From Duganella sp. Root1480D1 (GTDB lineage: Bacteria > Pseudomonadota > Gammaproteobacteria > Burkholderiales > Burkholderiaceae_D): a DNA stretch of 64,000 nt. Both the position numbers and the translations under genes were made by a program. The stretch is taken from positions 1-64,000 of the forward strand of contig NZ_LMFZ01000047.1 of assembly GCF_001427305.1 (NCBI RefSeq), written 5' to 3'. Every line of letters begins with the position of its first letter. The stretch's first letter is position 1. Of this stretch, positions 3,023-55,577 are shown one piece after another. A model generated the notes under the pieces. The model had not been told where the DNA came from, made no database searches, and saw only the letters and a list, made by a program, of their open reading frames with translations.

Positions 3023-3397
3023 TTAGTGCAGGGTTCGCGGCAGCGACAGCACGAATTCCGGGATCTTGGTCTCGAACTGGTGGCCATCTTCGGCCACGCA
3101 GAAATATTCGCCATACATGGAGCCCTGCTGCGTGCGCAATTGTGTGCCGCTGGTGTATTCAAACACTTCGCCAGGCGCCAGCAATGGCTGGTGGCCTACC
3201 ACGCCCAGACCGCGCACTTCTTCAATATGGTTGTTCGCATCGGTGATCACCCAGTGACGGGAAATCAGTTGGGCCGGCACGGTGCCGGTGTTCTTGATGG
3301 TGATCGTGTAAGTAAACACGAAATTGGTGCGGTCCGGATTGGACTGTTCCGGCAGGTACTGGGTGCGTACCTCGACCGCAAACTCATACTGGGCCAT
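3023..3397 (-). CDS. apaG: ApaG domain protein
   Basis: A 124-residue ApaG protein, a single fibronectin-like beta sandwich linked in enterobacteria to Co2+ resistance and Mg2+ efflux. Recognisable segments are FVFTYTITIKNTGTVPAQLISRHW, GVVGHQPLLAPGE and YTSGTQL followed by MYGEY (quoted in parts). The start at 3397 (MAQYEF) is chosen over an ATG five codons upstream because AAGGAA sits 6 bases before it. Divergent from rpe, with a shared promoter region at 3425-3470. Confidence 0.9.
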   Translation of the reverse strand: MAQYEFAVEVRTQYLPEQSNPDRTNFVFTYTITIKNTGTVPAQLISRHWVITDANNHIEEVRGLGVVGHQPLLAPGEVFEYTSGTQLRTQQGSMYGEYFCVAEDGHQFETKIPEFVLSLPRTLH

Positions 3398-3424
3398 AAG
3401 GGTTTCCTTCATAACAATTGGGCA

Positions 3425-51595: not shown

Positions 51596-53203
51596 ATGAA
51601 CTTCACGCAGTCGATGAGCATTGCCAAGAAACTGGCAGTGCTGAATGCTGGCGCCATCCTCGGCATCATCATCCTTACCGCCATCTTCCTCATTTCAGAG
51701 CGCACCCTCATCCTTGAGGAAAGGACAAGCAATGTGCGACAGGCCGTTGAAACGGCTTACGGTGTGCTCGACTACTACCAAAAGCAGGAAGCCAGCGGCG
51801 CCCTGCCCCGCGCTGAAGCCCAGAAGAAGGCGATGGAAGCGATCAAGGTGTTGCGTTATGGCAACAACGAATATTTCTGGCTGAATGACATGCAGCCGAA
51901 GATGATCATGCATCCGATCAAACCGGAACTCGATAACAAAGACCTCAGCGCCAACAAGGACCCGACCGGCAAACACCTGTTTGTCGAATTCGTCAACATG
52001 GTCAAGAAGGCAGGTGCCGGACCCGTCGATTACATGTGGCCAAAGCCGGGCAGCGACAAGCCGGTGCAGAAGGTCTCCTTCGTCAAAGGCTTTGAGCCAT
52101 GGGGCTGGATCCTTGGCTCCGGCGTCTACGTCGACACCGTCGATGCCACCGTGCGCGGACGCGCCGTCACCTTCGCCGCCGGTGCGGTCGTGCTGGCCGC
52201 CGTGCTGCTTGGCATCGGCGTCTTCATCGCCCGCGGCCTGCTGCGCCAGTTGGGCGGCGAACCGGATTACGCTTCCTCGATTGCCCGCAGCATCGCCGGC
52301 GGCGACCTGACCGTGCCGATCGACGTCAAGCGCGATGACAGCAGCAGCATGGTCAATGCGCTGAAGGGCATGCGCGATGACCTGGCGCGCATTGTCAGCT
52401 CGGTGCGCACCGCCACCGATACCATCGCCACCGCATCGAGCGAGATCGCGGCCGGCAACAGCGACCTCTCGGCACGCACCGAAAGCCAGGCCAGCTCTCT
52501 GGAGGAAACCGCCGCCTCGATGGAAGAACTGACTTCGACCGTGCGGCAGAATGCAGACAATGCGCGCACCGCGAACGAGCTGGCAGCCAACGCTTCGGAA
52601 GTGGCGCAGAAGGGCGGCGCAGTGGTGTCGCAAGTGGTCGAGACCATGGCTTCCATCGACAGTTCTTCACGCAAGATCGTCGACATCATCAGCGTGATCG
52701 ATGGCATTGCGTTCCAGACCAACATCCTGGCACTGAATGCGGCGGTGGAGGCGGCGCGGGCCGGTGAACAGGGCCGCGGCTTCGCGGTCGTGGCATCGGA
52801 AGTGCGCAACCTGGCGCAGCGCAGTGCGGCGGCGGCCAAGGAAATCAAGGACCTGATCGGCGCCTCGGTGGAGACCGTGGGCATCGGCAATTCGCTGGTG
52901 GCGCAGGCCGGCAGCACCATGCAGGAAGTGGTGGAGAGCGTGCACCGTGTCCGCCAGGTGATCAATGAGATCAGCACCGCTTCCAACGAACAGAGCGCAG
53001 GCATCGCGCAGGTCAATGAAGCGATTTCGCAAATGGATGCGGTGACGCAGCAGAACGCTGCGCTGGTGGAGCAGGCTGCCGCTGCTGCGGCCAGCATGCA
53101 GCAACAGTCGGCAGCGCTGCTGCAGGCGGTTGGCGTGTTCCGGGTCGACGCCGAACCTTCTGCCATGACGGCGCGCCGCACGCCACGCCTTGGCCGCAGC
53201 TAA
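51596..53203 (+). CDS. Methyl-accepting chemotaxis protein with cache domain
   Basis: 535 residues: membrane segment (about 12-33), periplasmic single cache domain (about 40-185, [18 protein letters not shown]), second membrane segment (about 188-210), HAMP (to about 265) and a signalling domain. The CheA/CheW-binding hairpin tip is [22 protein letters not shown]. Methylation helices contain [20 protein letters not shown]. Class and ligand unknown; cache domains of this type often bind small organic acids. Confidence 0.93.
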
Positions 53204-53217
53204 TGCCGTGATATGAT
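53190..53217 (+). promoter_or_regulatory. Promoter for the VOC gene leader
   Basis: TTGGCC (53190-53195), 16-bp spacer, TATGAT (53212-53217), inside the end of the chemoreceptor gene. It implies a transcript start near 53224 and a 5' leader of about 187 bases. Confidence 0.45.
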
Positions 53218-53221
53218 CGGG

Positions 53222-53400
53222 CCTGTCGAAAAAGGCAGGACCGGTTCAAGGTAAGCCCGGTCCCTCTCCTCCCCGGAGAGCTCTGCTCCGTGCGCAGTCT
53301 TGCATGAGAACCCACGACGATCCCGGCGCGAACGCGTCTCGGGCTCGTCGGGGCGTGGCCGGTCGATCCTCTCAGGCACTCCCGTTGGGCCCACCAACCA
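53222..53400 (+). other. Highly structured 5' leader before the VOC gene
   Basis: No gene is seen in 53204-53410. Instead, stem-loops follow one another: CCTGTC/GGCAGG (53222-53239), ACCGG/CCGGT (53240-53261), CTCTCC/GGAGAG (53264-53280), and a long one with CGACGA/TCGTCG arms (53315-53350) and an inner CCCG/CGGG. Alternatives exist: GGAG (53275-53278) can pair with CTCC (53286-53289) instead, and CCACG with CGTGG (53312-53316, 53354-53358). It resembles a cis-acting RNA, yet no recognised riboswitch signature was found. Confidence 0.5.
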
Positions 53401-53410
53401 TGGAGTCAAC

Positions 53411-53779
53411 ATGCAATTGAATCACCTCGACTTGTCCGTGTCCGATGTGGCAACGGCTTCCGCTTTCCTGATCCGCCATTTCGGCTTCACCCTTCTGCAA
53501 ACCAAAGGCAATCACGGCATGGCTGTACTGGCCGGCGATGGCGGTTTGGTACTCGTGCTGACCCGGCATGAGGAACCCACCTACCCCAAGACCTTCCACA
53601 TCGGCTTCCTCGTCGACGATGCTGGAAAAGTCGGCGCAAAGCATGCCGAACTGGCGGCCGCTGGCGTGAACGGGCTTTCACCTGTGCAGGAGATGCGCGG
53701 CGGCCCAGGCTTCTACTGCCGCACCGATTGGGGCATCCTGCTTGAAGTCGCAAACCGCACGCCACTTCAGGCAAGTTGA
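53411..53779 (+). CDS. VOC-superfamily (glyoxalase/bleomycin resistance-like) protein
   Basis: 122 residues from ATG 53411, with GGAG 6 bases upstream. One VOC beta-alpha-beta-beta-beta set in each half: MQLNHLDLSVSDVATASAFL to VLVLTRHEEP, then FHIGFLVDDAGKV to GILLEVANRTP. His 5 and Glu 115 are candidate metal ligands. Substrate unknown; members include glyoxalases, dioxygenases and antibiotic-binding proteins. The structured leader suggests RNA-level control. It ends overlapping the convergent arginase-fold gene by 13 bases. Confidence 0.85.
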   Translation: MQLNHLDLSVSDVATASAFLIRHFGFTLLQTKGNHGMAVLAGDGGLVLVLTRHEEPTYPKTFHIGFLVDDAGKVGAKHAELAAAGVNGLSPVQEMRGGPGFYCRTDWGILLEVANRTPLQAS

Positions 53780-54591
53780 CCGAACTTTCGTAAGATCGGC
53801 AGCAGCGACTGGATCAACGGTTCCGGCGAAACCGGCGGGCCGTCAACGACCCACGAGTTCTGGAATTCGGCAATCTCCAGCCCAAGGACTTCGCTCTCCG
53901 CGAGGACTTCGCAGGCGCTGCGCAAGTCCTCGAGACTCAGTCCGTTCGGATGCACGTAGTCGGTCGGAACTATGCCCGGCTCCAGCACATCGCAGTCCAG
54001 ATGGACATACACTGCCCTGCCCGCGATGGCCAGGCGGAGCTTTTCTGCCAGGCCGCCCCCCGGCTTGATATGGCACACCCTGCCCGATTGAATAAGGTCC
54101 ACTTCAAACGGGTCCAGGTCGCGTTGCCCCACCAGGACAATGTCTTCCAATGCCGTTCCTGCACCAAGCCCTGAGTCCCACAGTCCTGCCGGGCCTGATA
54201 AAGCCAATCCGCCGAGATATCCGCTCGTCGTCGAGGCCGGCGTATTCAAGTCGGCGTGAGCGTCGAACCAGACGATGCAGACATCGTTGTGCAAGGCCGA
54301 TATGACGGGAAGCGTGGCAAGTGAAACAGCACACCGGCTCGTCGCGGAAAGGGGCTTTTCGCCCCGTGCAACGACTTTCCTGAAATGCTGTTGAAGCTTA
54401 TGCAGTGTTGGCAGCGCATGGTTCAGCTCTGTACGCCACTCAGTGTTCAGGGCCGGCTCCGGGCTGCCAATGGTCACGGCCGGTAAATCAAAGAGCTTGC
54501 CCAAGTGTTCGCCGATGGACCTGGCGCCTGGAATTGCCAGGTTATTGTGGTCGCCTGCCAGGCCTTGGAAGATGGTTAATGCAGTAGTCAT
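53767..54591 (-). CDS. Arginase/agmatinase-fold protein with degenerate metal site
   Basis: 274 residues from ATG 54591. Ureohydrolase fold: metal-binding blocks WFDAHADLNTP and VHLDCDVLEPG are intact. The first block, normally GGDH or GGDC, reads TSRCAVS near residue 90, so its Gly-Gly-Asp is lost and Cys stands in the ligand position. Substrate therefore uncertain; a catalytic role is not assured. Divergent from the ArgP-like gene, which may regulate it. Confidence 0.8.
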   Translation of the reverse strand: MTTALTIFQGLAGDHNNLAIPGARSIGEHLGKLFDLPAVTIGSPEPALNTEWRTELNHALPTLHKLQQHFRKVVARGEKPLSATSRCAVSLATLPVISALHNDVCIVWFDAHADLNTPASTTSGYLGGLALSGPAGLWDSGLGAGTALEDIVLVGQRDLDPFEVDLIQSGRVCHIKPGGGLAEKLRLAIAGRAVYVHLDCDVLEPGIVPTDYVHPNGLSLEDLRSACEVLAESEVLGLEIAEFQNSWVVDGPPVSPEPLIQSLLPILRKFGQLA

Positions 54592-54659: not shown

Positions 54660-55577
54660 ATGAACAGCCTTAACTCTTCGCAGCTGGCCGCATTCGCGGA
54701 AATCATCCGCCAGGGCAGCTTTGATGGCGCAGCAAAGAAGCTCAATGTCACCGCTTCCGCCATCAGCCAGCGCATCAAGCAACTGGAAGACCGGCTCGGA
54801 CAAGTGCTCCTTGTGCGGGAAATACCCTGCCGGCCCACGCGCGCGGGACAGGAGCTGCTAAAGCACGCAAACCAAGTCGACTTGCTGGAGAAAGAGTTAA
54901 TCGAGAACATGGGCGCAGCCAATGCAGCGCTCAGCCAGCCGTTGAGCCTTTCGATCTCGGTCAATGCAGACTCCCTCGACGGCTGGTTCGTCCACGCTTT
55001 CGAAACATGCTGCTCGTCAGCGCCTATCCTGCTCGACATCCGCGTTGAAGACCAGGACTATTCTGCACAAATGCTGCGCGATGGCGAGGTAATGGCGGCG
55101 ATTGCGGCCTCCCCACTTGCGCCGCAAGGCTGTTCAGCAGAAAGGCTGGGGAGCATGCGTTATCTGGCGCTATGCTCGCCAGCTTTTTTCAGCCGCCATT
55201 TCCAAAGCGGAGTCAACGAAAGCACGCTCACGCAAGCACCAACATTGATTTACAACGCCAAGGACGACATGCAGCAGTCCTTTGCGAAAGCGATCGTCGG
55301 ACGCCCCATTCATCCGCCAGCGCACTTCATTCCTTCGACAAGCAGCTTTGTCCACCTTGCCAGGCAGGGCTTCGGCTGGGGCATGATTCCGGAGCATATG
55401 GCCAATGAACTTATGGTGCGCGGCGAGTTGGTAGAAGTGGCGCCGGGCAGGCACATCGATGTCGATCTCTATTTCCACAGATGGCAAATCAAATCCCGCG
55501 CACTGGACATACTGAGCACCGCCATACGGACGGCGGCGCAGCAGTATTTGCGTCCAGTTGCAGGCTGCCCTATTTGA
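54660..55577 (+). CDS. ArgP-like LysR-family regulator
   Basis: 305 residues. Winged HTH at the N-terminus: AFAEIIRQGSFDGAAKKLNV and TASAISQRIKQLEDRLGQVL, with ArgP-type CRPTRAGQELLKHANQV after it. The effector domain (about 95-300) starts LSLSISVNADSLDGWFVHAF. ArgP (IciA) responds to lysine or arginine and usually controls an exporter; here the divergent neighbour is an arginase-fold gene. Its stop overlaps the convergent DUF1579 gene by 8 bases. Confidence 0.85.
   Translation: MNSLNSSQLAAFAEIIRQGSFDGAAKKLNVTASAISQRIKQLEDRLGQVLLVREIPCRPTRAGQELLKHANQVDLLEKELIENMGAANAALSQPLSLSISVNADSLDGWFVHAFETCCSSAPILLDIRVEDQDYSAQMLRDGEVMAAIAASPLAPQGCSAERLGSMRYLALCSPAFFSRHFQSGVNESTLTQAPTLIYNAKDDMQQSFAKAIVGRPIHPPAHFIPSTSSFVHLARQGFGWGMIPEHMANELMVRGELVEVAPGRHIDVDLYFHRWQIKSRALDILSTAIRTAAQQYLRPVAGCPI

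What the first reader, a model, noticed from the sequence alone, without database searches (positions are those of the whole stretch)
53190..53410. Structured RNA leader with alternative pairings before a VOC gene
A promoter inside the chemoreceptor gene would give a leader of about 187 bases made of consecutive stem-loops, with two mutually exclusive pairings (CTCTCC/GGAGAG versus GGAG/CTCC; CGACGA/TCGTCG versus CCACG/CGTGG). Signatures I know for glycine, guanidine, TPP, FMN, cobalamin, fluoride, ZTP and cyclic di-GMP riboswitches are absent. It may be an undescribed riboswitch or other cis-acting RNA controlling a small enzyme of unknown substrate.
Basis: partly seen in the sequence, partly recalled or inferred. 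Interest (0 to 1): 0.62.

Follow-up and report, generated by a model that had tools for sequence, protein, structure and literature searches.

The report
Undescribed riboswitch candidate controlling resistance-type genes
The untranslated stretch before a small enzyme gene is one copy of a strongly conserved, folded RNA switch, absent from the RNA family library searched, that soil bacteria carry in front of drug-pump-like and drug-modifying-like genes and that probably turns them on when it senses a toxic small molecule.

Summary
The leader at 53225-53410 is real and is one copy of a widespread structured RNA with no Rfam 15 match. Orthologous VOC genes in Burkholderiales, Frateuria and myxobacteria carry it. 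A covariance model built from VOC leaders alone found the same RNA before unrelated genes: FAD monooxygenases resembling rifampin monooxygenase or aklavinone hydroxylase, and Tet-like MFS pumps. The host genome has a second copy, before a monooxygenase. Over 92 sequences 93.6% of pair cells are paired and 23 of 27 pairs show compensatory change; 0 of 500 shuffles match. Best reading: a ligand-ON translational riboswitch, probably sensing an aromatic natural-product toxin. The RNA class is close to certain; ligand binding, ligand identity and the ON direction are inferred. For the window's own copy, folding does not predict release of the Shine-Dalgarno.

The parts
53190..53217 (+). sigma-70-like promoter, TTGGCC-16-TATGAT with TG before the -10
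   Evidence: in 32 of 40 leaders the best hexamer with A2 and T6 ends 6 or 7 bases before the first base of the motif, against a mean of 2.4 and a maximum of 7 in 500 shuffles
53225..53318 (+). conserved RNA core (putative aptamer): P0, linker, P1, P2, P3
   Evidence: models R1/R2: 97.2 and 86.7 bits (the window is in both training sets); 92-sequence alignment
53225..53228 (+). P0 5' strand GUCG, at the inferred transcript start
   Evidence: covarying helix, 99.2% of cells paired; GC/AU, UA/UG/CG, GC/AU/GU/UA
53315..53318 (+). P0 3' strand CGAC, shared with P4
53229..53237 (+). conserved linker AAAAAGGCA; 53235-53236 may pair with the P1 loop at 53255-53256
   Evidence: pair 11-32 is GC in 84, AU in 3, GU in 1 and mismatched in 3 of 92, one gapped
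53238..53263 (+). P1 hairpin (53238-53244/53257-53263) with conserved loop GGUAAGC (53250-53256)
   Evidence: 5 of 7 pairs with change on both sides
53264..53280 (+).
   Evidence: 5 of 5 modelled pairs with change on both sides
53285..53311 (+). P3 hairpin, 53285-53293/53302-53311
   Evidence: 9 of 9 pairs with change on both sides, 86.3% of cells paired
53311..53353 (+). P4 hairpin (CGACGA 53315-53320/UCGUCG 53345-53350 plus CCC 53311-53313/GGG 53351-53353), competes with P0
   Evidence: the corresponding helix CGAAC/GUUCG keeps at least 4 of 5 pairs in 29 of 29 monooxygenase and pump leaders
53378..53406 (+). Shine-Dalgarno sequestor hairpin: ACUCC 53378-53382 with GGAGU 53402-53406; inner GUUGG/CCAAC
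53350..53383 (+). possible anti-sequestor: GGGGCGUGGCC 53350-53360 with GGCACUCCC 53375-53383 (weak)
   Evidence: duplex -9.9 kcal/mol, but P0+anti-sequestor is 3.1 kcal/mol above the P0-only fold
53402..53405 (+). Shine-Dalgarno GGAG
   Evidence: sequence
53411..53779 (+). controlled gene: 122-aa VOC protein with invariant His5, His63, Glu112
   Evidence: Pfam Glyoxalase 6.9e-15; invariant in 19 aligned sequences; model pLDDT 91.5, best structural match 1xqa Z 17.9, rmsd 1.2 over 111 residues

Best explanation
A previously unlisted class of translational riboswitch that turns gene expression on. SHOWN by comparison: a core of about 75-110 bases with helices P0-P3 and conserved linker, loop and junction bases; promoter-like hexamers that place transcription start at its first base; mostly detoxification-type genes directly downstream. 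INFERRED: without ligand, the P0 3' strand pairs downstream (P4) and the Shine-Dalgarno is held in a sequestor hairpin. When a small molecule binds the core, P0 closes and P4 opens. The freed P4 3' strand (GUUCGUCCG in the monooxygenase and pump leaders) then pairs with CGGUCGAAC in the sequestor's arm, and ribosomes can bind. The ligand is probably a toxic aromatic natural product (polyketide, ansamycin or quinone type) that the monooxygenases, VOC enzymes and MFS pumps modify or expel.
For: Covariation: 92 sequences, 23 of 27 pairs with change on both sides, 437 double-change cells against 132.8 in shuffles, 0/500; helices slid by 1-3 columns fall to 32-46% paired. A MAFFT alignment not fitted to structure agrees on covariation score and cells paired (0/500). 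A model trained only on VOC leaders retrieved leaders of unrelated genes. Downstream proteins: 40 of 91 match FAD_binding_3, 38 Glyoxalase/VOC, 5 MFS_1, 2 ABM, 2 NmrA, 1 adh_short. Nearest named relatives of the representatives scanned are rifampin monooxygenase, aklavinone hydroxylase RdmE and the Tet(42) and Tet(A)/(B)/(C) pumps, all below cut-off. In Pantoea dispersa the leader precedes an SDR gene and a pump scoring 421 bits against a Tet(A)/(B)/(C) cut-off of 475. P0 covaries, yet has probability over 0.5 in 0 of 65 predicted full leaders; its 3' strand pairs downstream in 59 of 65; in the isolated core P0 forms in 44 of 65. Enforcing P0 raises mean Shine-Dalgarno accessibility by 0.149 over 58 leaders, against 0.017-0.094 in 12 sets with shuffled platforms. 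The anti-sequestor can form all 8 pairs in 24 of 29 monooxygenase and pump leaders, with compensatory CAG/CUG in L107. No conserved upstream ORF.
Against: Only 28 of 58 leaders gain more than 0.1 in Shine-Dalgarno accessibility. The effect rests on the monooxygenase leaders (0.143 against 0.016 in shuffles for the larger group); for the 25 VOC leaders it is 0.159 against 0.102 and for the 4 pump leaders 0.147 against 0.121. The window gains 0.03, less than its own shuffled platforms (0.27), and the second copy L102 gains nothing. Five of 29 leaders (L091, L094, L095, L101, L122) cannot form the whole anti-sequestor. The linker-loop contact has 3 mismatches in 92, and 11 in its second pair. P0 is short and one leader (L122) has a mismatch in it. 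In the 13-sequence MAFFT alignment P0 does not vary, P3 shows no compensatory change, and two of five measures are weak (11/500 and 134/500). A VOC homolog of 53% identity (L003) and 19 more distant ones have no model match. The genes share a theme, not a pathway, so the ligand is a guess.
Confidence: 0.72

Rival explanations
1. A protein-binding leader: a dedicated RNA-binding regulator, not a small molecule, stabilises the core and controls translation.
For: Covariation and the switch layout do not say what stabilises P0.
Against: The RNA stands before genes of several unrelated families in distant lineages and on plasmids. In the six plasmid stretches that carry annotation no common regulator gene lies beside it. 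Conserved bases sit in internal linkers and loops, as in aptamers.
Confidence: 0.14
2. Ribosome- or leader-peptide-mediated attenuation: a translation-blocking drug stalls a ribosome on a short ORF in the leader and rearranges it.
For: The controlled genes look like resistance genes, and attenuation is common for ribosome-targeting drugs (recalled). Several VOC leaders contain an ATG in P3.
Against: By eye no start codon, frame or peptide is conserved over the 40 leaders listed, while RNA pairs are; the core begins at the inferred transcript start.
Confidence: 0.08
3. A structured leader with a constitutive role (mRNA stability, RNase or small-RNA target, thermometer) without ligand.
For: GC-rich stems; a Shine-Dalgarno in a hairpin also fits a thermometer.
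Against: Conservation of unpaired bases, a covarying closing helix that loses to downstream pairing, and gene choice mainly among detoxification-type enzymes and pumps.
Confidence: 0.05

Closest known systems
yjdF (azaaromatic) and guanidine (ykkC) riboswitches
   Same: RNA leaders tied to genes against toxic small molecules; the yjdF class may sense diverse planar hydrophobic compounds and raise an exporter (passages of PMC7266159)
   Different: no Rfam match at gathering score in the leader or in 19 related loci; other gene families
Orphan candidates from intergenic-region surveys (PMC2864571, PMC6429828, PMC8632094, PMC11109978)
   Same: found by conservation and covariation upstream of genes, ligand unknown
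   Different: term searches of those main texts found no monooxygenase, glyoxalase or tetracycline. Supplements could not be read, the 224-candidate survey is not held, and the 2010 survey lists a 'Burkholderiales-1' motif without an Rfam number that I could not compare
Drug-inducible leader-peptide attenuators of resistance genes (recalled)
   Same: RNA leaders before resistance genes, induced by the drug
   Different: need a translated leader ORF; none is conserved here
Proposed aminoglycoside riboswitch of aac/aad genes (listing of PMC7588185; dispute in passages of PMC7266159)
   Same: a claimed leader RNA that senses an antibiotic and switches on resistance
   Different: disputed as an integron attI1 site; here the RNA precedes several gene families and covaries in all four helices

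Membership tests
riboswitch (general) | lies in the 5' leader of a gene on the same strand | tested here: met
   for 91 of 92 aligned copies an ORF was chosen that starts 32-149 nt downstream (search limited to 20-270 nt; L059, L151 and L152 corrected by hand); L108 ends at a contig end
riboswitch (general) | conserved core with covarying helices | tested here: met
   weaker on a 13-row sequence-only alignment
riboswitch (general) | mutually exclusive pairing that couples the core to an expression platform | tested here: met
   P0 against downstream pairing in 59 of 65 leaders, in silico
riboswitch (general) | core closure exposes or hides the ribosome-binding site | tested here: inconclusive
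   mean rise above shuffled platforms, but only 28 of 58 leaders rise by more than 0.1 and the window does not
riboswitch (general) | binds a small molecule or ion directly, without protein | not testable with these tools
   needs in-line probing or SHAPE
any of the 4227 Rfam 15 families, known riboswitches included | covariance-model match at gathering score | tested here: not met
   window: only a tRNA elsewhere; 19 loci: none. At E up to 10 on three leaders the best were E 9.6 (MH_s15), 0.048 (a microRNA family) and 0.13 (a snoRNA family), all far below gathering; Glutamine-II reached 12.7 of 33 bits on the other strand and c4-a1b1 14.4 of 46.7
leader-peptide attenuator | conserved translated upstream ORF | tested here: not met
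   by eye over 40 leaders
intrinsic-terminator riboswitch | hairpin followed by a U run before the gene | tested here: not met
   no terminator-like site on the + strand of 52800-54000; other leaders not scanned

The most novel reading that the evidence does not exclude
A natural riboswitch class whose aptamer directly binds aromatic antibiotics or related toxins (tetracycline, anthracycline, ansamycin or quinone-like) and switches on genes that modify or expel them, spread across Pseudomonadota and myxobacteria and carried on plasmids: antibiotic sensing by RNA itself.
Probability: 0.42. Interest if true: 0.93.

Novelty: new variant of a known kind. Interest (0 to 1): 0.85.

Why it matters
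It would be a new riboswitch class with an unusual regulon: drug-type monooxygenases, Tet-like pumps and VOC enzymes. That gives concrete ligand guesses and a ready assay, and bears on the contested question of whether bacteria use natural RNA aptamers to sense antibiotics. It also gives a handle on the substrates of uncharacterised resistance-like enzymes, and shows how such genes can move between bacteria with their own RNA control.

Tried and rejected
Searching the leader DNA in 61 related genomes gave a meaningful match only in the window and one near relative (the rest at E 0.04 or worse); sequence search alone misses the family. Twenty VOC homologs of 25-53% identity (L003-L022) carry no copy within 1,500 bases: a narrow pattern found none, and model R2 gave nothing better than 13.6 bits, E 0.35. 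Upstream ORF attenuation: not supported. Rfam families: none. Transcription terminator: none on the + strand. E. coli genomes: no match to the L102 leader. Phylum of Minicystis: 1 of 282 genomes, Minicystis itself, although the four other myxobacterial or 'Deltaproteobacteria' genomes have copies when searched directly, so the sample or its stricter filter misses some. Order sample: 6 of 399, own genome included; phylum sample: 12 of 398, own genome included; in both, G677/L126 (31 bits, coding-like) looks false.

Dropped before the A6 counts: L103 (near-copy), L112 (36.6 bits, degenerate copy without a clear gene), L119-L121 (weak, coding-like), L126, duplicates of loci already in (L053, L072-L076, L124, L127, L138-L144) and loci cut at a contig end (L081, L084, L090). 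Weak matches that were never fetched were not judged. L167 and L168, short BLAST hits, gave no model match. The chance match L092:228-333 in A4 was left out of A5.

Paper searches showed no description of this RNA in the rows listed; for 87, 88 and 102 only a part of the hits was listed.

Full report
What is there. The 3' end of a chemoreceptor gene (51596-53203) is followed by a leader and a 122-aa VOC gene (53411-53779); the next gene, an arginase-family protein, is convergent. A promoter-like site, TTGGCC-16-TATGAT with extended -10, ends at 53217, so the transcript should begin near 53225. Folding the leader alone is only mildly better than chance (z -1.9; 7 of 200 shuffles as good).

Comparison. 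Scanning bacterial genomes for the VOC protein gave 19 loci. In all 19 the same leader is recognisable by eye in front of the gene: Duganella, Massilia, Telluria, Albitalea, Pelomonas, Frateuria, one Oxalobacteraceae and one betaproteobacterial assembly, and five myxobacterial or 'Deltaproteobacteria' genomes including Minicystis and Nannocystis. The scan reports only relatives that share short conserved peptides. More distant VOC homologs (L003-L022, 25-53% identity) have no model match, so the leader goes with one VOC group. The consensus begins GUCGAAAAAGGCAGG and runs through a P1 hairpin with loop GGURAGC, a P2 hairpin, CUCUGYUC, a P3 hairpin and CCCRCGAC. Nothing in Rfam 15 matches at gathering score: the window leader, 19 loci. 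At E up to 10, three leaders gave only weak, unrelated matches far below gathering.

Architecture. The 5' GUCG pairs with CGAC at the end of the core (P0), enclosing linker AAAAAGGCA, P1, P2, a junction, P3 and CCN. A model (R1) was built from 13 VOC leaders. In 343 genomes sampled from the family it found matches in 56 at E up to 0.1; by my count of the table 41 are at E up to 0.001; three weak ones fetched (L119-L121) look false. Many lie before genes unrelated to VOC, which is an independent success of a model trained on VOC leaders. The host genome holds two copies; the second precedes a 512-aa monooxygenase whose best NCBIfam match is rifampin monooxygenase, 343 bits against a cut-off of 800 (L102).

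Covariation. On 56 sequences, 21 of 25 pairs have changes on both sides and 0 of 500 shuffles match any of the five measures. On 92 sequences, 93.6% of cells pair, 23 of 27 pairs have changes on both sides, and slides by 1-3 columns drop to 32-46% paired. P0 pairs in 99.2% of cells with types GC/AU, UA/UG/CG and GC/AU/GU/UA. A two-pair contact between linker and P1 loop is suggestive only (GC 84, AU 3, GU 1, mismatches 3; second pair 11 mismatches). These alignments were fitted to the model. In the sequence-only alignment A3 (13 rows) 92.9% of cells pair and the covariation score beats all shuffles, but P0 is invariant, P3 has no compensatory change and two of five measures are weak (11/500, 134/500).

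Promoter. In 32 of 40 leaders the best hexamer with A2 and T6 within 14 bases ends 6 or 7 bases before the first G of P0; 500 sets of shuffled upstream stretches give a mean of 2.4 and a maximum of 7. The transcript appears to start with the core. By eye no upstream ORF is conserved.

Platform. In 29 monooxygenase and pump leaders the region after the core is highly conserved: CGACGAAC...GUUCGUCCG (P4), then CGCUCCGGUCGAAC, then GGAG and the start codon. P4 keeps at least 4 of 5 pairs in CGAAC/GUUCG in 29 of 29. CUCC can pair with the Shine-Dalgarno GGAG. The P4 3' strand GUUCGUCCG can instead pair with CGGUCGAAC, which would break the sequestor: all 8 pairs are possible in 24 of 29, not in L091, L094, L095, L101 and L122. 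L107 keeps it by CAG/CUG (duplex -8.6 kcal/mol; -5.8 without the partner change). In L068 the free fold pairs the P0 3' strand CGGCC directly with the ribosome-binding region AAAGGUCG. In Minicystis (L067) such a pairing can be drawn by eye, but the free fold holds the Shine-Dalgarno against P3 instead.

Switch test in silico. In 65 leaders, ended at an assumed start codon, P0 has probability above 0.5 in none; its 3' strand pairs downstream in 59; in the isolated core P0 forms in 44. Enforcing P0 raises Shine-Dalgarno accessibility by 0.149 on average in 58 leaders, against 0.017-0.094 in 12 sets with shuffled platforms; 28 of 58 rise by more than 0.1. By class the rise against shuffles is 0.143 against 0.016 (24 leaders of the rifampin-monooxygenase-like group), 0.160 against -0.009 (4 of the RdmE-like group), 0.159 against 0.102 (25 VOC), 0.147 against 0.121 (4 pumps) and 0.014 against 0.017 (1 other VOC). 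The window's own leader goes from 0.19 to 0.22, less than its shuffled platforms (0.12 to 0.39), and L102 stays at 0.07. A weak anti-sequestor can be drawn for the window, but costs 3.1 kcal/mol relative to the P0-only fold. So an ON switch is favoured, not shown.

Genes. Of 91 downstream proteins, 40 match FAD_binding_3, 38 Glyoxalase, 5 MFS_1, 2 ABM, 2 NmrA, 1 adh_short. Representatives were scanned further. The monooxygenases fall in two groups: one nearest rifampin monooxygenase (L095, L102, L165; solved relatives 5kow, 5vqb), one nearest aklavinone hydroxylase RdmE (L117, L111, L145; solved relatives GrhO5, RubL, RdmE). Pumps are nearest Tet(42) (L105, L083) or Tet(A)/(B)/(C) (the Pantoea pump, 421 bits against a cut-off of 475). 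All are below the curated cut-offs, so these are relatives, not assignments. The VOC protein has invariant His5, His63 and Glu112 in 19 sequences, positions that I recall as the VOC metal-binding triad. Its model (pLDDT 91.5) is closest to 1xqa (Z 17.9, rmsd 1.2, 111 aligned), then FosX (15.3, 2.0, 116), the phenazine-resistance protein EhpR (14.7, 2.1, 115) and FosA (14.5, 2.2, 116); a shared fold shows no function. The common theme is modification or export of toxic aromatic natural products; that theme is inference.

Spread. With R2 at E up to 0.001, centre genomes included: 6 of 399 genomes of the order, 12 of 398 of the phylum, 14 of 131, 4 of 99 and 1 of 4 in three hit-bearing families, 1 of 282 in the phylum of Minicystis. 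The L102 leader matches 14 plasmids: Agrobacterium 5, Caballeronia 2, Rhizobium 2, Methylorubrum, Sphingobium, Pantoea, Rahnella and Methylobacterium; the last two only by 32-34 bases and without a model match. In Pantoea dispersa it precedes an SDR gene and a 'TCR/Tet family MFS transporter'. The window leader matches one plasmid, of Eleftheria terrae, before a VOC gene.

Literature. Nine full-text searches showed no description in the rows listed (listings only, some capped). Term searches inside four surveys and one review showed no such association (passages only). Supplements were not available, the 224-candidate survey is not held, and the 2010 survey lists a Burkholderiales-1 motif without Rfam number, which I could not compare. 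So an earlier unnamed or unelaborated entry cannot be excluded.

Verdict. The RNA class is almost certain; a ligand-ON translational riboswitch is the best mechanism (0.72); the ligand class is a reasoned guess.

Noticed in passing
L102 (G000:C6:46000-51000), core at 3310-3398 on the minus strand: Second copy of the RNA in the host genome, before a 512-aa monooxygenase nearest to rifampin monooxygenase.
   Followed up: yes
L164 2501-4624: Pantoea dispersa IncFIB plasmid: the leader precedes an SDR gene and a 'TCR/Tet family MFS transporter' (421 bits to the Tet(A)/(B)/(C) model, cut-off 475), near isochorismatase and MarR genes.
   Followed up: partly
L112 1253-1340: Degenerate second-line copy (36.6 bits) without an evident intact downstream gene, perhaps a decaying locus.
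   Followed up: no
L125 1676-1927 and L151 1680-1817: Leaders followed by short NmrA-like ORFs of 84 and 46 aa, far shorter than the 298-position profile; truncated genes or frameshifts possible.
   Followed up: no
L152 1657-1872: Leader precedes a 72-aa protein that looks like a small membrane protein of unknown function.
   Followed up: no
L150 1021-1449: Leader precedes a 143-aa protein that by eye looks like a MarR-type regulator, unlike the enzymes and pumps elsewhere.
   Followed up: no
L003 (G026), VOC homolog of 53% identity: This homolog has no copy of the RNA within 1,500 bases by model search, so the RNA is not always kept with VOC genes of this similarity.
   Followed up: partly
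window 53225-53229 with 53363-53367: In the free fold the very 5' GUCGA pairs with UCGAU downstream, so both strands of P0 may be occupied when ligand is absent.
   Followed up: no
window 53767-54588 (-) and 54660-55577 (+): Arginase-family gene and a divergent ArgP/LysG-type regulator next to the VOC gene; probably unrelated to the leader.
   Followed up: no
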